A DNA stretch of 64,000 bases from Nitrosomonas supralitoralis (lineage in GTDB: Bacteria > Pseudomonadota > Gammaproteobacteria > Burkholderiales > Nitrosomonadaceae), in NCBI RefSeq assembly GCF_003011925.2, contig NZ_PXXU01000013.1, positions 1-64,000 on the forward strand, given 5' to 3'. Position 1 is the first letter of the stretch. Each line of letters starts with the position of its first letter. Shown in pieces: positions 5,747 through 18,149 of the stretch. The notes below the pieces were generated by a model. The model ran no database searches and was not told the DNA's origin. It saw nothing but the letters and a program-made list of their open reading frames with translations. A program made the translations under genes and the position numbers.

Positions 5747-6832
5747 TTGAAAACTTTCCAGTGCCGGTGCGGAAATAATCTGCATTTTGAAAATAATCAG
5801 TGTTTTTCCTGCAATCGGATGGTCGGTTATTTGCCTGATGAAAGTCAACTCAGTGCGTTGGAACCGTCTGTGGATGGTAGTTGGTTGGCTTTGCTTAATA
5901 ACCAAAACTATCGTTTGTGTAAGAATAATGTGGATTATAGTGTTTGTAATTGGATGGTGCCAGTTCGTGATGAGCACGTCTTATGCGTTTCATGTCGCCT
6001 TAACCACGTTATTCCAAATCTCAATGAAGCACAGAATCTTACATTATGGTATCGCGTTGAAATTGCCAAACGGCGCCTCCTTTATACCTTGTATAACCTG
6101 AATTTGCCGGTAGTGAGTCGAGAAGAAGATCCGTTTAAAGGAATGGGTTTCGAGTTCCTGCAGGATAAGACTGCACAAGGGGAATTCAGCAATGAACTAA
6201 CCATAGGGCATAGCATTGCAACAGGCCATAACTCTGGCATGATCACTATTAACCTGCTAGAAGCAGAGCACGGTTCCCGTATAGAGATGCGTGACAAAAT
6301 GAATGAACGTTATCGTACTTTGCTGGGGCATTTCAGACATGAATCCGGACATTATTATTGGGATTTATTGATTAATGAAACAGACAGAGTCAATAGTTTT
6401 CGTGGACTGTTTGGTGATGAGAGATTAGATTACCAGCAATCATTAAGAACCTACTATGATCAGGGCCCGCCAGCATTCTGGCGGGATATTTGGATTAGTG
6501 CCTATGCCAGCACGCATGCCTGGGAAGACTGGGCAGAGACATGGGCGCATTATTTGCATATGGTGGATACTGTCGAAACGGCGCATGACTTTGGATTTAG
6601 AATCCATGGTCATGATGTTTCTCCACCCCTAATAAACGATATGCAAATGAGTAGTGGTTATTTTACTCCCGCTTCGTTTGACGAGCTGTTCGATGATTGG
6701 TGTCGTTTATCCGTTGCATTGAATGCACTTAACCGAAGTATGGGTATGGACGATGCCTATCCATTCATAATTTCCGATACTTCGTTAAACAAACTTCGAT
6801 ATATTCACCAAATCATATCCGAAATGAGCTAG
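5747..6832 (+). CDS. Putative zinc-binding metallopeptidase (zinc ribbon + HExxH)
   Basis: A 361-residue protein with two parts. The first 85 residues form zinc ribbons (Cys 6, 8, 19, 22 and Cys 58, 67, 80, 83). Further on lies a metallopeptidase motif, HESGH, at residues 198-202 within HFRHESGHYYW, with E151 and other acidic residues nearby. This matches the zinc-ribbon plus putative zinc-binding peptidase family (COG4307-like). The start is TTG at 5747, eight nt after AGGA; no in-frame ATG fits. Homologues are often found with Anbu, alpha-E and ATP-grasp genes, and here it lies convergent with the Anbu gene, 3 nt from its stop. Peptidase activity is inferred, not demonstrated for this protein. 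Confidence 0.8.
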   Translation: MKTFQCRCGNNLHFENNQCFSCNRMVGYLPDESQLSALEPSVDGSWLALLNNQNYRLCKNNVDYSVCNWMVPVRDEHVLCVSCRLNHVIPNLNEAQNLTLWYRVEIAKRRLLYTLYNLNLPVVSREEDPFKGMGFEFLQDKTAQGEFSNELTIGHSIATGHNSGMITINLLEAEHGSRIEMRDKMNERYRTLLGHFRHESGHYYWDLLINETDRVNSFRGLFGDERLDYQQSLRTYYDQGPPAFWRDIWISAYASTHAWEDWAETWAHYLHMVDTVETAHDFGFRIHGHDVSPPLINDMQMSSGYFTPASFDELFDDWCRLSVALNALNRSMGMDDAYPFIISDTSLNKLRYIHQIISEMS

Positions 6833-6835
6833 TAC

Positions 6836-7585
6836 TCACTCTTGGCTTGTGCTTTCCCACTCGAAGCGAGGTAAACGATCGCAGGCTTTGCGCAGACCCT
6901 CATTCCATTGTTTCTGCATTGACTTGTACATGGGTGAGTTGAGTGTTAGCTTTAAATGATAGGGTTCTTGAATAGTATCACTGGTGTACATTGCCAGTTC
7001 GATGGGTGGGCCTACAGAGATATTGCTGCGAATAGTGGATTCCACAGATACTAACGCACAACGTGCAGCATCTTCGATTGAAGTGGTGGGGGTAATGATG
7101 CGATCCAGAATCGGTTTGCCGTACTTGTTCTCACCAATTTGCAGATAAGGTGTTTCAGGTGAAGCGCTAATGTAATTACCCTGCGGGTAAATCAAAAAAA
7201 TCTCTGAAGGTTGCCCAGCAATTTGCCCACCTAAAATAAAACTTGCCTCAGACCCACCATTAGTACTTTTTTCCATTGCATCTGCATGCTGGCGTTGTTC
7301 TTTTTGGCTGAGCTGGCCAATATAGTGTGCCACTTCATATAGATGTTGGCCCTTACGAATGTTCATTTTAGCATTTGGTTTTTCCAAATCAGTTCGAATA
7401 TTGTTTAGCACTGCTTGCGATGTGGCTAAGTTGCCGGCTGTCAGCAGTACACAAATGCGTTCATCAGGCCAGACAAATGTGTGCATTTTGCTATAAGTGG
7501 TTACATAATCAACTCCAGCATTAGTTCTTGAATCAGAAGCAAATACCAAACCTTTATTAACGCTGATAGCGAGGCAATAAGTCAT
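6836..7585 (-). CDS. Anbu-type proteasome-like Ntn hydrolase
   Basis: A 249-residue protein with the proteasome beta-subunit/HslV fold of the Anbu (COG3484) family. The N terminus is MTYCLAI. Removal of Met exposes Thr1, with Asp17 in the segment ASDSRTNAGVD and Lys32 in SKMHTF, matching the Thr1-Asp17-Lys33 catalytic set of proteasome-type proteases. GNLATSQ and GGQIAG segments follow. Anbu proteins form open-ring or helical assemblies and lack a dedicated ATPase partner. Family neighbourhoods pair it with transglutaminase, alpha-E and permuted ATP-grasp proteins, all present within 6 kb. The transglutaminase gene lies upstream on the same strand, separated by 267 bp that contain repeat copy 2. 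Confidence 0.92.
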   Translation of the reverse strand: MTYCLAISVNKGLVFASDSRTNAGVDYVTTYSKMHTFVWPDERICVLLTAGNLATSQAVLNNIRTDLEKPNAKMNIRKGQHLYEVAHYIGQLSQKEQRQHADAMEKSTNGGSEASFILGGQIAGQPSEIFLIYPQGNYISASPETPYLQIGENKYGKPILDRIITPTTSIEDAARCALVSVESTIRSNISVGPPIELAMYTSDTIQEPYHLKLTLNSPMYKSMQKQWNEGLRKACDRLPRFEWESTSQE

Positions 7586-7700
7586 AGTTTTTATATAAAA
7601 ATAAATAAATCAGAGCGGTTATCTCACAATTTGTGTTACCTGAAACCGGACATTATCCATGTGAAAAAATTGTTACGGTGCTGCAGTAGAGAAAGCATTT

Positions 7701-7848
7701 TAACAGGCCGTTGAAAAAACTATCTGCGTTGTTGCTACGGTGTTAAAAACAGGCTCAAAATGCTCATTTATTAAGCATAAACTGCGCTTTTTCACCTGTT
7801 TTTGCCTTGTAGCAGTTGCCTAGAAAACGTTTTCCAATGGCCTGTTAA
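7701..7848 (+). repeat. Palindromic 148-bp repeat, copy 2 (best preserved)
   Basis: The element is bounded by inverted termini: TAACAGGCCGTTGAAAAA at 7701-7718 and TTTTCCAATGGCCTGTTA at 7830-7847, which pair at 16 of 18 positions. Inside is a second imperfect inverted pair around AAAAACAGG and CCTGTTTTT, so the whole unit can fold into one long hairpin. It ends 4 bp before the transglutaminase stop codon and lies between that gene and the Anbu gene, both transcribed leftward. Its transcript would therefore carry the hairpin between the two reading frames. Confidence 0.9.
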
Positions 7849-7852
7849 TTCC

Positions 7853-8674
7853 TTAGAGCTCGATTATTTTTACTTCCGTTTCCAATCGTGAACTGACATT
7901 GCCTCGATAAGAGCCATACACGGGTAAAGTTTTCTTTGGGTCTTTATTGGCAGCAACGGGTATATATGCTTCATTGGTAAAAATACCGGCACTTGGATCT
8001 GCGCCTATCCATCCTGCTCCAGGTGCTATGAATTCCACCCAGGCATGCAGTTCGTGACCCTCTCCCAATTCCGGATTGAAGGCGTATCCACTCACAAAGC
8101 GGGCTGGAATTCCCAGATATCTAAGCATTGTGATCATCATCCATGATAAATCGCGACATGATCCGTTTTTTCTTTGAAAGCAGTCGGAAGGTTCATGTAT
8201 GTTTTCAGCATATCTTACCGTATGACTCCATTGCTGGTTGATCAATTGCAGAATTTCATTTACTGATGTCAGTAATTCAGTAAATGGCAGCGCCTTATAG
8301 GGTAGTAACATTACTTGCATTTCAGATGATATGGGCTGATTGATACTCAAGTAGCCAAAGTGTTCCTGATTGTTCATTTCCATAACATTCATGTCTAAAA
8401 AGAAACCAAAAGGGTTAAATTGAGTAGAATGCACCTTAATGGATGCATTAATCTCCAGACACTTCACGGTTTTGTTGAACCAGCATTGATATTGTAATGA
8501 ATTTTCAATATTCAATAAGGGAAAGAGTCCGTCTGGGATGGGGTCTACCTTGAGATCAAAGGCTTCAACTTGCAAGTAAGATCGATGTTGAGGGTAAAAA
8601 TTAAGATAATGAGGTTCAAGAAAAACGGAATCATCATAGTGGTAACGAGTTATGTGGTGTATATGTAACCGCAT
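7853..8674 (-). CDS. Transglutaminase-like cysteine protease
   Basis: A 273-residue protein with an N-terminal beta-rich transglutaminase N-domain (starting MRLHIHHITRYHY) and a transglutaminase-like catalytic core. The triad is Cys173 in GSCRDLSW, His210 in ELHAWVEF and Asp226 in GADPSAG. Such bacterial proteins are generally thought to act as proteases or amidases rather than cross-linking enzymes. The start is ATG 8674 (AAGG 7 nt upstream) rather than the TTG one codon earlier. It is on the same strand as the Anbu gene and, with the ATP-grasp and alpha-E genes to the right, completes the usual Anbu neighbourhood. Confidence 0.92.
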   Translation of the reverse strand: MRLHIHHITRYHYDDSVFLEPHYLNFYPQHRSYLQVEAFDLKVDPIPDGLFPLLNIENSLQYQCWFNKTVKCLEINASIKVHSTQFNPFGFFLDMNVMEMNNQEHFGYLSINQPISSEMQVMLLPYKALPFTELLTSVNEILQLINQQWSHTVRYAENIHEPSDCFQRKNGSCRDLSWMMITMLRYLGIPARFVSGYAFNPELGEGHELHAWVEFIAPGAGWIGADPSAGIFTNEAYIPVAANKDPKKTLPVYGSYRGNVSSRLETEVKIIEL

Positions 8675-9390
8675 CAAGTAACCTTTAACTCAGGGTTATG
8701 TAAGTTGCAAAAGCTTTGTTCAAAGCTTCTGTGGTATGGCATCTGATTTGTGAGTCGTGAGAGCCGAAAATTAATCGATAAGCCAGAATTAATGGTCAGA
8801 ATTCTCATTTTCTCGTGGTAATTCAAGGCAATAATAAGCTTTAACTGCAGAGCCATACTCGCGATATTTTATTGAGTTCGTGTATCTCAGTGTGGCCTGC
8901 TGCCGTGTGTATCAAACAGTCTACATCATTAGCAAAAATTCAAGTGCATCAAATGCTAAGGATAAGATTGAGAACGAATTTAAGATACTATAATGTAATG
9001 ATTAATCTTCATGCACTTATGTTCCCTCTTAGTCAATTTGATCCAATACATATTAAAATATGTTTAATGATTTGATTTTATACTGTTGTGCAGGTATTAA
9101 TAATTTTTTAATACGTGTAAATAGGTTTGACAACCAATTCTATTTACAGTAATTTAGAATTAAAGTATTTGTTTTTTAATCTAAAAAATTTCAGATGCTT
9201 CTCTGGTAAAAAACCCTAATACATGCTTTTTGCACTTATATCCAATTTCTGTTGTGGCAGCTTGTTCGGACATCAAATCCTTGTTTAGACATAATGAACT
9301 TTATTTCCTGCAGAAATAATAATTTACTTAGGTTATATCAGAGTAGAGAAGATATTTTTCCCCAGCGTTAAGGATAAGAATCGGCAATTT
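8675..9390. other. Divergent intergenic region
   Basis: An AT-rich region separates the leftward transglutaminase/Anbu genes from the rightward glutamine synthetase gene, so it must carry divergent promoters. A 60-codon minus-strand frame at 8674-8856 ends on the transglutaminase start (TGATG), but its product resembles nothing. The 8872-9075 plus frame is equally unconvincing. GAAGCTTTG-AACAAAGCTTTTG near 8711-8732 is a partial palindrome. Confidence 0.5.
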
Positions 9391-10404
9391 ATGAGTAAAT
9401 CTAAATTAGAGTACATTTGGTTAGATGGATATGAGCCAACGGCTAACTTAAGAAGCAAGACAAAAGTGGTAGATAATTTCAGCGGTAAATTAGAAGATTG
9501 CCAAGTCTGGTCTTTTGATGGCGGCTCGACTAAACAAGCGGTTGCAGGATCTTCGGATTGTTTGCTGAAACCAGTTTCAATCTTTCCGGATCCAGACAGA
9601 ATTAATGGTTTCTTGGTCATGACTGAAGTTTTGAACCCTGATGGAACACCACACGAATCTAATTCCAGAGCACGAATTGATGATGATGCCGAAAATGATT
9701 TCTGGTTTGGATTTGAACAAGAATATTTCATTATGGATAAACATACACAATTGCCATTAGGCTTCCCTGTTGGCGGTTATCCTGGCCCTCAAGGCATGTA
9801 TTATTGTTCTGTTGGTGGAAAGAATACACATGGAAGAAAGTTTGTTGAAGAGCACGCGGATTTATGTATTGCCGCCGGACTTAATTTCGAAGGTATTAAT
9901 CAAGAAGTGGCCAGTGGACAATGGGAATTTCAACTATTCGCTCAAGGAGCTAAGAAAGCAGGAGATGAGATATGGATAGCCCGATATTTATTGGATCGTT
10001 TAACTGAAAAATATGGCTACTATATTGAATATCACCCAAAACCCATAAAAGGGGATTGGAACGGCTCTGGCATGCATGCCAATTTTTCTAACACGACTTT
10101 AAGAACCTGTGGTTCTCAAGAAACTTATGAAAAAATTTGCGAAGCGTTCCGGTCAGTTACCGAAGAACATCTGGCTGTTTATGGAGAGTTCAATGAGCAA
10201 CGCTTAACGGGTAAACATGAAACCGCGTCGATCCATGTTTTTAGTTTTGGTGTTTCTGATAGGAAAGCATCCATCAGGATACCCATTATTACAGTACAGA
10301 ACGGCTGGAAAGGTTGGCTAGAAGACAGAAGGCCTGCTTCCAACGGCGACCCCTACAAAATAGCAGCAAGGATTATTAAAACGGTTAAATCTGTCAAGCT
10401 GTAA
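9391..10404 (+). CDS. Type II (eukaryote-like) glutamine synthetase
   Basis: A 337-residue protein of the GSII class, shorter than the ~470-residue GSI typical of proteobacteria. Blocks in order: YIWLDGYEP beta-grasp start, FDGGSTKQA, EQEYFIM with two metal-binding Glu at about residues 114-116, GPQGMYYC, NQEVASGQWEFQ, GDWNGSGMHANFS with the ATP-site His, RLTGKHET, ASIRIP and EDRRPASN. All expected metal, ATP and glutamate ligands appear present, so ATP-dependent glutamine (or related amide) synthesis is predicted. Codon use is unlike the neighbours: 10 of 15 Arg codons are AGA/AGG. This suggests transfer. It stands between the two halves of the Anbu/ATP-grasp cluster; a dedicated role there is inference. 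Confidence 0.9.
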   Translation: MSKSKLEYIWLDGYEPTANLRSKTKVVDNFSGKLEDCQVWSFDGGSTKQAVAGSSDCLLKPVSIFPDPDRINGFLVMTEVLNPDGTPHESNSRARIDDDAENDFWFGFEQEYFIMDKHTQLPLGFPVGGYPGPQGMYYCSVGGKNTHGRKFVEEHADLCIAAGLNFEGINQEVASGQWEFQLFAQGAKKAGDEIWIARYLLDRLTEKYGYYIEYHPKPIKGDWNGSGMHANFSNTTLRTCGSQETYEKICEAFRSVTEEHLAVYGEFNEQRLTGKHETASIHVFSFGVSDRKASIRIPIITVQNGWKGWLEDRRPASNGDPYKIAARIIKTVKSVKL

Positions 10405-10832
10405 GAACAAAGATATAAAGAGCAAAGAAATAATCGTTGATGGTTTTTATTGATTGCTCCCTGCTTATGAAGGACTTTCTTGATGAGTCGTGTGCGCTTT
10501 GCAGCGTACTATTACATATTTAACCACAACGTTTGCTTTTGGATTGGTAGTGAGCGACGACATCTTAATAAGAAATTAATAAATCATGGTTCCCAATAGA
10601 ACAGACGCTGCGAATAATCATATTTAATATATTCACGACTTTATCGGCTATCGTTTAACTATTAATGAATTGCGATCTGTGCTGAGCGCTAAGAAATATG
10701 GAATATGGAAGAATGAAAGAATAAATAATACACAGCACATTTGTATTTTGCTTTAAATGCGTGCTATTTTGAAATTATACATATGAAAGAAAAGTATATT
10801 TCATTTATTGGATTTTATATGATGAGAACATA
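10405..10832. other. AT-rich intergenic region before the ATP-grasp gene
   Basis: There is no gene-like frame and no clear terminator after the glutamine synthetase. Its length suggests that the ATP-grasp/alpha-E pair has its own promoter, probably in the AT-rich stretch around 10720-10830, but no confident -35/-10 pair was identified. Confidence 0.45.
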
Positions 10833-12287
10833 ATGGCTATTCGCTGGGGAAGTTACAAGGTAAAAAATCTGTATGATGAAATGCTGCGGGCTAGTGGGAG
10901 GCCACGCCCGGCTGCAAAGGCTTTGTGCAGTTATTTGCGTACTTTGAAAGACGAAGATATTGAGGAGTATAAGCTGGCAGCAGAATCCGCCATCCATGTT
11001 ATGGGCGTCACATTCACTGTTTATACTGAAGAAGAAGGCTCTATTGATCGTGCCTGGCCGTTTGATATTATTCCACGTATTATCGATAAAAAAGAATGGC
11101 AACAAGTAGAGTCAGGCCTCAAGCAGCGTGTTCAGGCTTTAAATCTTTTTATTGATGATCTGTATCATAATCAGCACATTGTCAAGGATAAGATTTTCCC
11201 AGATGAACTGCTCAAAGATTCTAAAAACTTTCGCCCGGAATGCGTCGGTATAAATCCGCCACTGAGTATCTGGGCCCATATTTGTGGTTCAGATTTGGTA
11301 CGAGACAAAGATGGCACATTTTATGTGCTGGAAGACAACTTGCGTGTTCCATCAGGCGTTTCGTACATGTTGGAGAATCGCCTGGTAATGAAGCGTTTGT
11401 TTCCAGAAATGTTTGATCAATACAATATCCTGCCTGTTGATGATTATCCTTCGCAGTTATATGACACATTGGCAGCGTTATCACCACGATCCGGAGAGCA
11501 GCCTGAAATTGCTGTTCTGACACCGGGTATTTTCAACTCTGCCTATTTTGAACATGCCTATTTGGCGCAGCAAATGGGAGCGGAGTTGGTCGAGGGTAGT
11601 GATCTGATTGTAGACAAGAATGACATTGTGTACATGCGTACTATCGAAGGCCTTGCGCGGGTAGATGTAATCTATCGTCGCATTGATGACTTGTTTCTTG
11701 ATCCGGAAGCATTTCAACCTGATTCCTTATTGGGTGTGCCGGGAATCATGCGTGCCTGGAAAGCTGGGAAAGTTGCTCTAGCCAATGCACCCGGGGCCGG
11801 TGTGGCCGACGATAAGGTAGTCTATGCTTTTGTGCCAGAAATGATTAAATATTATTTGGATCAAGACGCCATTTTACCGAATGTCCCTACCTATAAATGC
11901 ATCGATAAGCAGGAACGCGAACATGTTATTGAGCATATTCATCAGATGGTGGTTAAGCCAGCCAATGAATCGGGCGGCTATGGCATGCTCATCGGTCCAC
12001 AAGCCGGCAAGGAAGAGCGCGATAAGTTTGTAAATCTGATCCGTCGTGACCCGCGTAATTATGTTGCACAACCGATGTTAACGCTTTCTACCGCACCCAC
12101 CTTGGTAGGCAATCGCGTGGAGCCGCGTCACTTGGACTTGCGTCCTTTTATTTTGAGTGGAAAGCAGACCGTTGTTACAACCGGTGGCCTGACACGTGTG
12201 GCATTGCGTAAGGGTTCAACAGTTGTTAACTCCTCACAAGGCGGGGGTAGTAAAGATACCTGGGTGGTTGATATGGAGACAGTTTAA
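10833..12287 (+). CDS. Circularly permuted ATP-grasp protein
   Basis: A 484-residue protein of the COG2308 family (DUF404/DUF407 type). Recognisable blocks are the N-terminal YDEMLRASGRPRP, GINPPLSIWAHICGSDLVRD, the very conserved VLEDNLRVPSGVSYMLENR (about residues 167-185) and VVKPANESGGYGMLIGP (about 373-389), the last being the displaced ATP-binding Lys/Gly segment. ATP-grasp enzymes ligate a carboxylate to an amine through an acyl phosphate, so peptide or amide bond formation is expected. The substrate is unknown. The alpha-E gene follows after 2 nt, clearly co-transcribed. In contrast to the glutamine synthetase upstream, 12 of its first 13 Arg codons are CGN. Confidence 0.93.
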   Translation: MAIRWGSYKVKNLYDEMLRASGRPRPAAKALCSYLRTLKDEDIEEYKLAAESAIHVMGVTFTVYTEEEGSIDRAWPFDIIPRIIDKKEWQQVESGLKQRVQALNLFIDDLYHNQHIVKDKIFPDELLKDSKNFRPECVGINPPLSIWAHICGSDLVRDKDGTFYVLEDNLRVPSGVSYMLENRLVMKRLFPEMFDQYNILPVDDYPSQLYDTLAALSPRSGEQPEIAVLTPGIFNSAYFEHAYLAQQMGAELVEGSDLIVDKNDIVYMRTIEGLARVDVIYRRIDDLFLDPEAFQPDSLLGVPGIMRAWKAGKVALANAPGAGVADDKVVYAFVPEMIKYYLDQDAILPNVPTYKCIDKQEREHVIEHIHQMVVKPANESGGYGMLIGPQAGKEERDKFVNLIRRDPRNYVAQPMLTLSTAPTLVGNRVEPRHLDLRPFILSGKQTVVTTGGLTRVALRKGSTVVNSSQGGGSKDTWVVDMETV

Positions 12288-12289
12288 TC

Positions 12290-13210
12290 ATGCTTTCTCG
12301 AGTTGCCAACAAAATCTACTGGATGGCACGCTACTTGGAGCGTGCCGAAAATACTGCACGTTTGATCAATGTCAATACACACTTGTTGCTTGATTTGCCA
12401 AAACGGGTGAAATTGGGATGGGAGCCCATCGTCGATATTACAAGCCGTCATGACTATTTTTACAGCTTATATGAAGAAGCAGATGAACGCAGTGTGATAC
12501 GTTTCATGGTTACTGATCTTCGCAATCCTGACTCTATCCTTTGTGCACTTAACATGGCGCGTGAGAATACTCGGACCATTCGTGACATTATTCCGCGTGA
12601 GGTATGGGAGCAGGTTAATGCACTTCATTTGAACGCAAAAACTAATGCGAGAAGTGTACAGACACAGCGACATCGCTATGATTATTTACGTTCTATCATT
12701 CTCGGTGTACAAACCATTAGCGGTATGCTGGCTGGGATTATGACCCACGATGAAGGCTATGATTTTCTGCGCATGGGGCGTAACCTGGAACGTGCTGATA
12801 TGACAACACGTATTATTGATGTTCGCTCCGCCACACTACTGCCGGACATGTCGGAAGCTTTATCCCCATTTGAGAATTTACAATGGGTCAGTGTGCTCAA
12901 GTCACTCAGCGCTTACCAAATGTACCGTCGTGAAATGCGTCTGCGCATAAGCCGTCCGGATGTTCTGAAATTCTTGTTGCAAGAAGAGCGCTTTCCACGT
13001 GCTTTTTATCACGCCATATGTCAGGTGCATAATTGTTTGGTGAATTTGCCACGTAACGAAAAAACATTACCGTTAATCACCAAGCTTCAACAGAAACTGC
13101 AAAACTCCAAACTCCAGACATTTAATCAGGGGAAACTACATGAATTTATTGACGAGCTACAACTCGGGATAATCAAGATTCATAACGGTATTAATAAAAC
13201 CTATTTTTAA
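12290..13210 (+). CDS. Alpha-E domain protein, partner of the ATP-grasp protein
   Basis: A 306-residue, almost entirely helical protein of the alpha-E family (COG2307). It has the conserved start MLSRVANKIYWMARYLERAENTAR, a central DYLRSIILGVQ segment and FLRMGRNLERADMTTRI at about residues 160-176. No catalytic motif is visible. In other genomes it occurs almost always next to circularly permuted ATP-grasp proteins and is thought to help them act, perhaps as a scaffold or acceptor. It overlaps no other gene and ends the transcription unit, followed by a hairpin at 13229-13257. Confidence 0.92.
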   Translation: MLSRVANKIYWMARYLERAENTARLINVNTHLLLDLPKRVKLGWEPIVDITSRHDYFYSLYEEADERSVIRFMVTDLRNPDSILCALNMARENTRTIRDIIPREVWEQVNALHLNAKTNARSVQTQRHRYDYLRSIILGVQTISGMLAGIMTHDEGYDFLRMGRNLERADMTTRIIDVRSATLLPDMSEALSPFENLQWVSVLKSLSAYQMYRREMRLRISRPDVLKFLLQEERFPRAFYHAICQVHNCLVNLPRNEKTLPLITKLQQKLQNSKLQTFNQGKLHEFIDELQLGIIKIHNGINKTYF

Positions 13211-16606: not shown

Positions 16607-16745
16607 ATAATCTCTCTTTATAAATTTATTTTTTGGCTGCTGCGATTAATCAATGCTGGCAGCATAAAAGAAAAGAATTACTGCAATCTTGATCTGTATC
16701 AAGATAAGAGCAATCAGTTTTTTTAATTTCTTAATATTTAATGTT

Positions 16746-17423
16746 ATGACTCGTTTCTCGTTCCCCCCCGTGGGAGATGCTCTGAGAGAGCCTAATGGGT
16801 TACTGGCTGTTGGCGGAGATCTTACTTCGCATCGCTTGCTTGAGGCTTATAGTAAAGGTATCTTTCCCTGGTTTAATGATGATCAACCGATTCTTTGGTG
16901 GAGCCCGGATCCTCGCATGGTGCTGTTTCCCCACAAATTGAAAATTTCTCGCTCACTCCGGAAAGCCATTAAAAGCGCTCATTATGAAATTCGCACGGAC
17001 TGCAGCTTTAATCAGGTCATGCTAGCTTGTGCAGCACCGCGCGCAGGTCAGGCAGGCACCTGGATACATCCACAAATGGTTGCTGCTTATACTGCGCTAC
17101 ATGAAATGGGATTAGCGCATTGTGTGGAAACCTGGATTGATGGTGAGCTTGCTGGAGGACTCTATGGAGTTGCCCTGGGTAAGGTATTTTTTGGCGAGTC
17201 AATGTTTTCGCGCGTACAGGATGCGTCAAAAATTGCCCTGGTACATCTGGTAAAACAGTTACAATTCTGGCAATTTGGTCTGATAGATTGCCAAGTTAGA
17301 ACCGATCATCTGGCATCCTTGGGTGCACAAGAAATTTCCAGAACAGAATTTAGTCAAATATTGGACGCCTTAATTACAATTGGATCTAAACCTGGTAGCA
17401 AATGGAACTTTGAACGTATTTAG
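16746..17423 (+). CDS. aat: Leucyl/phenylalanyl-tRNA-protein transferase
   Basis: The frame opens at 16689, but the family start is ATG 16746 (MTRFSFPPVG), giving 225 residues. Signature blocks: GLLAVGGDL at 18-26, LLEAYSKGIFPWF at 31-43, WWSPDPR at 51-57 and GGLYGVALGKVFFGESMF at about 137-154. The enzyme moves Leu or Phe from charged tRNA to N-terminal Lys or Arg of proteins, making N-degrons for ClpAP through ClpS. It is the first gene of a run with bpt 18 nt downstream, so both N-end-rule transferases are expressed together. Confidence 0.97.
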   Translation: MTRFSFPPVGDALREPNGLLAVGGDLTSHRLLEAYSKGIFPWFNDDQPILWWSPDPRMVLFPHKLKISRSLRKAIKSAHYEIRTDCSFNQVMLACAAPRAGQAGTWIHPQMVAAYTALHEMGLAHCVETWIDGELAGGLYGVALGKVFFGESMFSRVQDASKIALVHLVKQLQFWQFGLIDCQVRTDHLASLGAQEISRTEFSQILDALITIGSKPGSKWNFERI

Positions 17424-17441
17424 ATTGAGTATAATTTACCC

Positions 17442-18149
17442 GTGCTTAAATTTCACACCACCAATCCTTATTCCTGCAGTTATTTGCCTGACAGATTGGC
17501 ATGTTCGGAAATTGCAACGCCAGAACAGCTGATTGATACACAGACTTACGGAGAATTAATCCAGGCGGGTTTTCGCCGCAGCGGACATTACATCTATCGC
17601 CCATGCTGCGAGCATTGCCAGGCTTGTCAATCAGTGCGCATCAATGTGAAAACTTTTACTTCCAAGCGAGCACAACGTCGTGCCTGGAAAAAACATCAGC
17701 ACGTAGTAGCGATACAACATCCGTTGCATTACCAACCTGAGCACTATGCACTCTATCAACGATATCAGTTCAAGCGACACTTGGGGGGTGGCATGGATAA
17801 TGATTGCCGTGAGCAATATAACAATTTTTTATTGCAAAGCTATGTGAATTCCAAATTAATAGAATTCCATGAAGCAGGGCAGTTACGCATGATCAGTATT
17901 ATTGACATTCTGCCCGATGGTATTTCATCGGTATATACTTTTTTTGACGCGGATATCGCTCATGCAAGTTTCGGCACCTACAATATCATATGGCAGATTG
18001 AACAATGCCGGCAGCTTGGTCTGGACTATCTTTATCTTGGTTATTGGATCAAAGAAAATCGAAAAATGCAGTACAAAGCCAATTTCAAATCACTCGAAGT
18101 TCTGATTAATGGTCGCTGGCAATTACTGGACAGCAGTAATATTTCTTGA
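17442..18149 (+). CDS. bpt: Aspartate/glutamate leucyltransferase
   Basis: A 235-residue protein beginning at GTG 17442. The N-terminal domain carries [13 protein letters not shown] and the Cys cluster [13 protein letters not shown] (about residues 54-66). The C-terminal GNAT-like domain includes [22 protein letters not shown]. Bpt transfers Leu from Leu-tRNA to N-terminal Asp or Glu, making secondary N-degrons bacterial. Its family is the bacterial counterpart of eukaryotic arginyltransferase (older name Ate). Placement directly behind aat is common in betaproteobacteria. The stop codon lies 41 nt before the preferred pyrD start. Confidence 0.96.

What the first reader, a model, noticed from the sequence alone, without database searches (positions are those of the whole stretch)
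5747..13210. Anbu proteasome / ATP-grasp / alpha-E / transglutaminase cluster with zinc peptidase: predicted peptide ligation and hydrolysis system
Six consecutive genes combine two kinds of amide-bond makers (a circularly permuted ATP-grasp with its alpha-E partner and a glutamine synthetase) with three kinds of amide-bond breakers (Anbu Ntn hydrolase, transglutaminase-like protease and HExxH zinc peptidase). Catalytic residues are intact in each: Thr1/Asp17/Lys32 in Anbu, Cys/His/Asp in the transglutaminase, HESGH in the peptidase. The Anbu, transglutaminase, alpha-E and ATP-grasp association is known from other genomes, but its substrate and product are not established. The peptidase and glutamine synthetase add components. 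My inference is that a peptide or glutamyl-type tag is made and removed.
Basis: partly seen in the sequence, partly recalled or inferred. Interest (0 to 1): 0.8.

Follow-up and report, generated by a model that had tools for sequence, protein, structure and literature searches.

The report
Anbu peptide-ligase cluster with extra enzymes
A Nitrosomonas bacterium carries an unusual version of a known but functionally unsolved gene cluster built around the proteasome relative Anbu, in which a zinc peptidase has become a constant partner and a glutamine-making enzyme, apparently borrowed from flavobacteria, is an optional extra.

Summary
The six genes are real, intact and correctly named; the window is from a Nitrosomonas. 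The core is the known Anbu system (ATP-grasp, alpha-E, Anbu), but rearranged: not the usual single ATP-grasp/alpha-E/transglutaminase/Anbu operon. The zinc peptidase (PF15887) is a genuine partner: it is at the Anbu locus in 15 of 15 Anbu-positive Nitrosomonas, in none of 17 tested Nitrosomonas without Anbu, and recurs beside the same ATP-grasp/alpha-E pair elsewhere, sometimes without Anbu. The transglutaminase is not the canonical operon one; it falls with the TGase-DUF2126 type and is in 8 of 16 Nitrosomonas with the locus. The glutamine synthetase is a normal-looking GSII of flavobacterial type. Of 125 family genomes 5 have it, all five in this locus beside the transglutaminase; the window's closest sister loci lack it, and so do 78 Anbu loci examined outside the family. 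'Two amide makers, three breakers' holds as anatomy. The tag-and-remove idea is the published, untested hypothesis for Anbu, and nothing here shows that GSII makes a tag. A review lists a related metagenomic gene set with antinematode activity, which points to a small product instead. New variant of a known, unsolved kind.

The parts
5747..6832 (+). PepMx: zinc-ribbon plus HExxH zinc peptidase (PF10005 + PF15887), 361 aa
   Evidence: tail-to-tail with Anbu, 3 bp between the ends; at the Anbu locus in 15 of 15 Anbu-positive Nitrosomonas
6836..7585 (-). Anbu, proteasome-like Ntn hydrolase, 249 aa, T1/D17/K32 intact
7853..8677 (-). transglutaminase-like thiol hydrolase, 274 aa, C174/H211/D227; TGase-DUF2126 clade, not the canonical Anbu-operon TGase
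   Evidence: in 8 of 16 Nitrosomonas with the locus
9391..10404 (+). GSII, glutamine synthetase type II of flavobacterial type, 337 aa
   Evidence: in 5 of 125 family genomes, each time in this locus
10833..12287 (+). circularly permuted ATP-grasp ligase, 484 aa; solved relative 3n6x
12290..13210 (+). alpha-E protein, 306 aa, an internal duplication (two LERAxxTxR halves)

Best explanation
The locus is a rearranged, expanded form of the known Anbu system. Core chemistry (from family knowledge, not shown here): the ATP-grasp enzyme, working with alpha-E, uses ATP to activate a carboxylate and form an amide bond on a small peptide or a protein end; Anbu and the zinc peptidase PepMx are hydrolases that trim or recycle substrate or product. 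In Nitrosomonas PepMx is the constant hydrolase partner and the transglutaminase-like enzyme is optional. GSII most likely acts as an ordinary glutamine synthetase that captures ammonium or supplies glutamine when the system runs; it came from a flavobacterium-like donor (one clade in the four Nitrosomonas carriers; G006 may be a second event). Shown: gene content, intact catalytic residues, linkage, selection, affinity of GSII. Inferred: the chemistry, the substrate and any coupling between GSII and the rest.
For: PepMx at the Anbu locus in 15 of 15 Anbu-positive Nitrosomonas and in none of 17 Anbu-negative ones tested. The TGase-less arrangement PepMx/Anbu/ATP-grasp/alpha-E recurs in another family (L095), a variant in L106. 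PepMx beside the same kind of ATP-grasp/alpha-E pair without Anbu in L174, L191, L192. ATP-grasp and Anbu go together: both in 16 of 125 family genomes, ATP-grasp alone only in G061, whose contig is cut, Anbu alone only as one very weak hit in G124. GSII is in this locus in 5 of 5 carriers, next to TGase each time, with a different orientation in G006. Purifying selection on all six genes. Anbu is raised in nitrogen-limited P. putida, as quoted in PMC5666114 and PMC6376114 (passages).
Against: No biochemistry exists for this variant in what I saw. GSII is absent from the sister loci L020-L022 and from 78 Anbu loci outside the family. Of 38 other GSII genomes in the phylum sample, 29 were seen with 1.5 kb flanks and had none of the other five genes there; two of these, G438 and G503, were seen with about 20 kb, and only G438 has related genes; the other 9 were compared by listed positions only. 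Upstream regions of GSII share no clear element. 12 of 20 PepMx loci sampled outside the family have none of the other genes within 10 kb. G006 has the Anbu system and GSII but no PepMx.
Confidence: 0.5

Rival explanations
1. GSII is a bystander: a horizontally acquired nitrogen-assimilation gene that landed in an AT-rich gap of the locus. The system proper is PepMx, Anbu, ATP-grasp and alpha-E, with optional TGase.
For: GSII is 83-88% identical to Bacteroidota GSII, where 78 of 78 loci have none of the other five genes in the fetched stretch; in L231 it lies head to head with GSIII. Missing from the sister loci L020-L022. No clear shared upstream element. One clade, so one insertion explains four of the five carriers.
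Against: The fifth carrier, G006, has GSII beside the transglutaminase of a very different Anbu locus (Anbu 26% identical) and in another orientation. In G438 GSII lies 2.4 kb from PepMx and near TGase-DUF2126. Kept under selection (dN/dS 0.02-0.04).
Confidence: 0.4
2. The system makes a small secreted or bioactive peptide-like metabolite: ATP-grasp/alpha-E build it, Anbu, TGase and PepMx process it, and GSII feeds glutamine. It may deter grazers.
For: A review table lists a metagenomic clone (jj117, Ulva australis library) with antinematode activity whose genes are given as ATP-grasp, alpha-E, transglutaminase and protease, compound undetermined (PMC7764037, one passage; the primary paper was not seen). 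[quoted passage not shown] (passages).
Against: No exporter or leader peptide gene was recognised among the genes scanned around the locus (a leader peptide was not specifically searched for); the activity is for another cluster and I saw no mechanism.
Confidence: 0.2
3. A nitrogen-salvage module: Anbu, PepMx and TGase break down peptides or deamidate glutamine under nitrogen limitation, and GSII re-fixes the released ammonium; ATP-grasp/alpha-E has a separate role.
For: Anbu induction in nitrogen-limited P. putida and ammonia as a by-product of transglutaminase are discussed in PMC6376114. Marine metagenome networks tie Bact_transglu_N, alpha-E and the ATP-grasp domains to urea metabolism domains (PMC3597751, passages). 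GSII sits with TGase in all five carriers.
Against: An ammonia oxidiser seldom lacks ammonium (recalled); the ATP-grasp gene is kept with Anbu almost without exception.
Confidence: 0.15
4. One reading: a peptide or glutamyl-type tag is put on proteins by ATP-grasp/alpha-E and GSII and taken off by Anbu, TGase and PepMx.
For: Ligase plus hydrolases in one locus. Tagging is the published hypothesis for Anbu operons (passages of PMC6376114).
Against: GSII keeps the glutamine-synthetase residues and groups with other GSII; published Anbu preparations did not cleave the tested proteasome substrates.
Confidence: 0.12

Closest known systems
Canonical Anbu operon (ATP-grasp, alpha-E, transglutaminase, Anbu)
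   Same: Same ATP-grasp, alpha-E and Anbu families with intact catalytic residues
   Different: Not one operon; PepMx added as a constant partner; TGase of another clade and optional; GSII added; ATP-grasp/alpha-E divergent from Anbu. 53 of 78 outside Anbu loci have ATP-grasp, alpha-E and a TGase within 6 kb
TGase-DUF2126 / ATP-grasp cluster with PepMx (L183, L185, L223)
   Same: PepMx, a TGase of the same clade fused to DUF2126, and an ATP-grasp; alpha-E also found in L185 and L223 (the clade by fused TGases of other loci)
   Different: No Anbu in the stretch fetched; ATP-grasp only 25-31% and alpha-E 22-25% identical to the window's. DUF2126 is absent from all 17 Nitrosomonadaceae with the locus
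GSII of Flavobacteriia
   Same: GSII 83-88% identical
   Different: No Anbu-system gene in the fetched stretch in 78 of 78 loci
Metagenomic antinematode clone jj117
   Same: Listed genes: ATP-grasp, alpha-E, transglutaminase, protease (review table in PMC7764037)
   Different: Sequence and primary paper not seen; whether its protease is Anbu is unknown
Rim and Rlo operons of Pseudomonas (ATP-grasp plus aspartic protease)
   Same: ATP-grasp protein paired with a protease; rlo also has an inactive transglutaminase-domain membrane protein (PMC12239564, passages)
   Different: Different protease family; analogy only

Membership tests
Anbu | Homology to solved Anbu structures | tested here: met
   5loy E 6.6e-80, 5lox E 4.2e-64
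Anbu | Thr1, Asp17, Lys32 | tested here: met
Anbu | Open split-ring dodecamer | not testable with these tools
   Known from PMC5666114 (passages)
Canonical Anbu operon | Four genes in one direction: ATP-grasp, alpha-E, TGase, Anbu | tested here: not met
   orientation and order differ
Canonical Anbu operon | TGase of the operon clade | tested here: not met
   with G006 and TGase-DUF2126 types, 98/96; the Nitrosomonas stem is long and the tool warns about one long-branch row
Glutamine synthetase type II | GSII sequence and active-site motifs | tested here: met
Glutamine synthetase type II | NCBIfam GlnII equivalog cut-off (500 bits) | tested here: not met
   373.9 bits; but five comparison GSII, two flavobacterial and three other proteobacterial, also score only 383-391, so the cut-off does not discriminate here
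Glutamine synthetase type II | Makes glutamine | not testable with these tools
   No assay
Peptidase_Mx (PF15887) | HExxH with zinc ribbon | tested here: met
Peptidase_Mx (PF15887) | Fold of a known zinc peptidase | tested here: inconclusive
   model pLDDT 87.2; best PDB match E 0.45, not significant
Known anti-phage defence system | Match in PADLOC | tested here: not met
   none of six proteins
DUF2126 amidoligase | GSII related to DUF2126 at profile level | tested here: not met
   hhalign probability 0.6%

The most novel reading that the evidence does not exclude
GSII has been recruited as a working part of the Anbu system, standing beside a TGase whose relatives elsewhere are fused to the putative amidoligase DUF2126. 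The GS enzyme would then supply, or itself make, the glutamine or gamma-glutamyl unit that ATP-grasp/alpha-E ligates and that Anbu, PepMx and TGase remove, giving a first concrete lead to the substrate of Anbu.
Probability: 0.15. Interest if true: 0.75.

Novelty: new variant of a known kind. Interest (0 to 1): 0.42.

Why it matters
Anbu is a widespread proteasome relative with solved structures but, in the papers seen here, no known substrate or role. A lineage in which a zinc peptidase is a constant partner, the transglutaminase is dispensable and a glutamine synthetase was added narrows which parts are essential (ATP-grasp, alpha-E, Anbu) and points to glutamine or ammonium as a testable link. 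The recurring PepMx/ATP-grasp/alpha-E pairing without Anbu suggests that PepMx acts on the product of the ligase.

Tried and rejected
Canonical TGase orthology: rejected by tree. GSII as a homologue of DUF2126: no profile match. Defence system: no PADLOC hit. Regulatory link: promoter and terminator scan at chance level; GSII upstream regions show no clear shared element among four carriers. Structure-based function for alpha-E and PepMx: good models but no significant PDB match. PepMx as a replacement for TGase at Anbu loci: only suggestive, 2 of 7 TGase-less against 0 of 53 TGase-bearing loci that have ATP-grasp and alpha-E outside the family, p about 0.012 (whose script used 52 instead of 53), and contradicted inside Nitrosomonas, where 7 loci have both. 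Link to ammonia or methane oxidation: AMO family found in 1 of 11 genomes searched, G501, and not in the window's own assembly, so not used as evidence.

Literature. Search listings only, many capped, showed no paper on PepMx with Anbu or on Anbu in Nitrosomonas; one search listed 3 and one paper that look unrelated by title and were not opened. Passages were read in PMC6376114, PMC5666114, PMC12239564, PMC8665760, PMC3597751, PMC7764037, PMC8407117; none was read whole. Iyer et al. 2009 is not held and was seen only through citing passages. The primary paper on clone jj117 was not found. A tuberculosis-group cluster with similar parts is recalled, not tested; the search for it found nothing.
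Full report
What is there. The six ORFs are at the stated places and belong to the named families. Solved relatives exist for Anbu, the ATP-grasp protein (3n6x, labelled putative glutathionylspermidine synthase, E 5.7e-159), GSII and, weakly, the TGase. For PepMx and alpha-E sequence searches found none of note. Catalytic residues are intact. By orientation and spacing the genes form four blocks: PepMx (+), Anbu and TGase (-), GSII (+), ATP-grasp and alpha-E (+). PepMx and Anbu meet tail to tail with 3 bp between them.

Organism. G060, in the same genus as the window, carries its GSII at the same coordinates of a contig of the same length (34,255 bases) as JAJFJG010000151.1, Nitrosomonas sp. 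OFTM113. The window is therefore from a Nitrosomonas. No AMO family match was found in its draft assembly. A second, stronger PF00227 match lies on another contig, perhaps HslV (recalled).

Distribution in the family. Of 125 genomes of the family, 17 have an Anbu match, one of them very weak (G124), and 17 an ATP-grasp match at E 1e-20; 16 have both. G061 has ATP-grasp but its 3.4 kb contig ends inside it. I compared the 14 other same-genus loci and G006 gene by gene. PepMx is at the Anbu locus in all 15 Nitrosomonas, window included; in G009 the full copy is displaced by about 2.6 kb, and a short C-terminal piece touches Anbu. In 34 genomes searched for PepMx it was found in exactly these 15, in none of 17 Anbu-negative Nitrosomonas, not in G006 and not in G061. 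TGase is in 8 of 16 Nitrosomonas with the locus (G061 counted), in G006, and in none of the 17 without. GSII proper is in 5 of 125 genomes (window, G057, G060, G061, G006); the best matches of 113 further genomes are weak, E 1e-7 to 1e-3, and look like other glutamine synthetases by length. All five have it in this locus beside TGase. So the contents are nested in Nitrosomonas: core in all, TGase in half, GSII in half of those.

GSII loss or gain. The sister loci L020-L022 have TGase but no GSII. In L022 a 25-base match to the stretch just behind the window's GSII is kept in the right place, which hints, weakly, at loss of GSII there.

Affinity of GSII. Two are Nitrosomonas loci already known here as G060 and G061; the other 78 are Bacteroidota, nearly all Flavobacteriia by title, 83-88% identical. 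The four Nitrosomonas GSII form one clade (100/100) among them (41 rows, thinned by a fixed step). In 78 of 78 of these loci none of the other five genes was found in the fetched stretch, at most 10 kb each side. In L231 the neighbour is GSIII. The G006 fragment (80 residues) is nearest to Nitrosomonas at protein level, 89-92%, against 85% for the best flavobacterial row, but at DNA level a flavobacterial row ranks first. GSII scores below the NCBIfam GlnII cut-off, but so do five comparison GSII, so this is no sign of a new activity.

Outside the family. In a sample of 397 genomes of the phylum, 161 have Anbu, 81 PepMx and 39 GSII at E 1e-30, window included. I fetched 78 Anbu loci from 77 of the 159 Anbu genomes outside the family, chosen by hand across families from a list that was capped at its weak end. 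Within 6 kb of Anbu, 53 have ATP-grasp, alpha-E and a TGase, 7 ATP-grasp and alpha-E without TGase (2 of them with PepMx), 3 a TGase only, 15 none. GSII: 0 of 78 in the fetched stretch. I fetched 20 PepMx loci from 20 of the 79 PepMx genomes outside the family, picked by hand by score and family, and not counting the two at Anbu. Of the 20, 8 have ATP-grasp, alpha-E or TGase-DUF2126 within 10 kb: L174, L180, L183, L184, L185, L189, L191, L192. In L174, L191 and L192 PepMx sits with relatives of the window's pair (ATP-grasp 61-74%, alpha-E 37-60% identical). G438, looked at because GSII and PepMx were near each other, has GSII, a DUF2779 protein, PepMx, TGase-DUF2126, ATP-grasp and alpha-E within about 10 kb. 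Of 31 genomes in both lists, only the window and G438 have PepMx and GSII at nearby listed positions. The surroundings of the other GSII genes were seen only in part: 29 of 38 with 1.5 kb flanks, two of these with about 20 kb.

TGase. The Nitrosomonas TGase does not group with the canonical operon TGase. It falls with G006 and with TGases fused to DUF2126 (98/96; 40 rows, canonical ones thinned to 15; the Nitrosomonas stem is long). DUF2126 is absent from 17 of 17 Nitrosomonadaceae with the locus. A profile comparison gives no sign that GSII and DUF2126 are related, so replacement of one by the other is conjecture.

Alpha-E. Its two halves are homologous: 138 columns, probability 99.3%, E 1.8e-20, against 0.1 to 2.0% for three control pairs. 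Each half carries a LERAxxTxR motif (E17, R18, R24 and E167, R168, R174, each in at least 90% of 47 sequences). The model is confident (pLDDT 91.9) and has no significant match in the PDB (best E 0.38). Whether this duplication is already in print was not searched for.

How it most likely works. Known for the family: ATP-grasp enzymes make amide bonds by acyl phosphates, and the Y. bercovieri ATP-grasp protein releases phosphate from ATP, while Anbu did not cleave tested substrates (PMC6376114, passages). I infer that ATP-grasp/alpha-E makes an amide bond and that Anbu and PepMx hydrolyse substrate or product. The PepMx/ATP-grasp/alpha-E pairing without Anbu suggests that PepMx is tied to the ligase as much as to Anbu. 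GSII most likely makes glutamine. Whether it feeds the system or merely lives there is undecided: two placements independent of the window (G006, G438) favour a link; its patchiness and the lack of a clear upstream element speak against it. A table in a review (PMC7764037) lists a metagenomic clone with ATP-grasp, alpha-E, transglutaminase and protease genes as active against nematodes, and metagenome networks tie these domains to urea metabolism (PMC3597751). These are leads for a small product and for a nitrogen link, neither tested here.

Verdict. The peptidase is a real component of this variant, the GSII an optional one. The tagging interpretation is the existing, unproven hypothesis. I rate this a new variant of a known kind.

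Noticed in passing
12290-13210, + strand, and 46 relatives (alignment A1): Alpha-E is an internal duplication; both halves carry a LERAxxTxR motif and align over 138 columns with E 1.8e-20.
   Followed up: partly
16689-18149: Leucyl/phenylalanyl- and arginyl-tRNA-protein transferase genes (PF03588, PF04376/PF04377), makers of N-terminal peptide-bond tags (recalled), lie 3.5 kb beyond alpha-E; they were not found in the fetched stretches around the other same-family loci, so a link is not supported.
   Followed up: partly
L023:8247-9140 (-): In G009 a 297-residue gene without Pfam match lies between TGase and Anbu, with a short C-terminal PepMx piece next to Anbu.
   Followed up: partly
between Anbu and ATP-grasp in L023, L025, L026, L029-L033: The letters ATTATA are identical upstream of ATP-grasp in 8 of 8 loci aligned, with partly conserved surroundings; possibly a shared promoter or operator.
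   Followed up: no
window genome G000: No AMO family match in the draft assembly of this Nitrosomonas, although the genus is defined by ammonia oxidation (recalled); perhaps an assembly gap.
   Followed up: no
L223:9187-17270: In G438 GSII, a DUF2779 protein, PepMx and a 1099-residue TGase-DUF2126 protein follow one another.
   Followed up: partly
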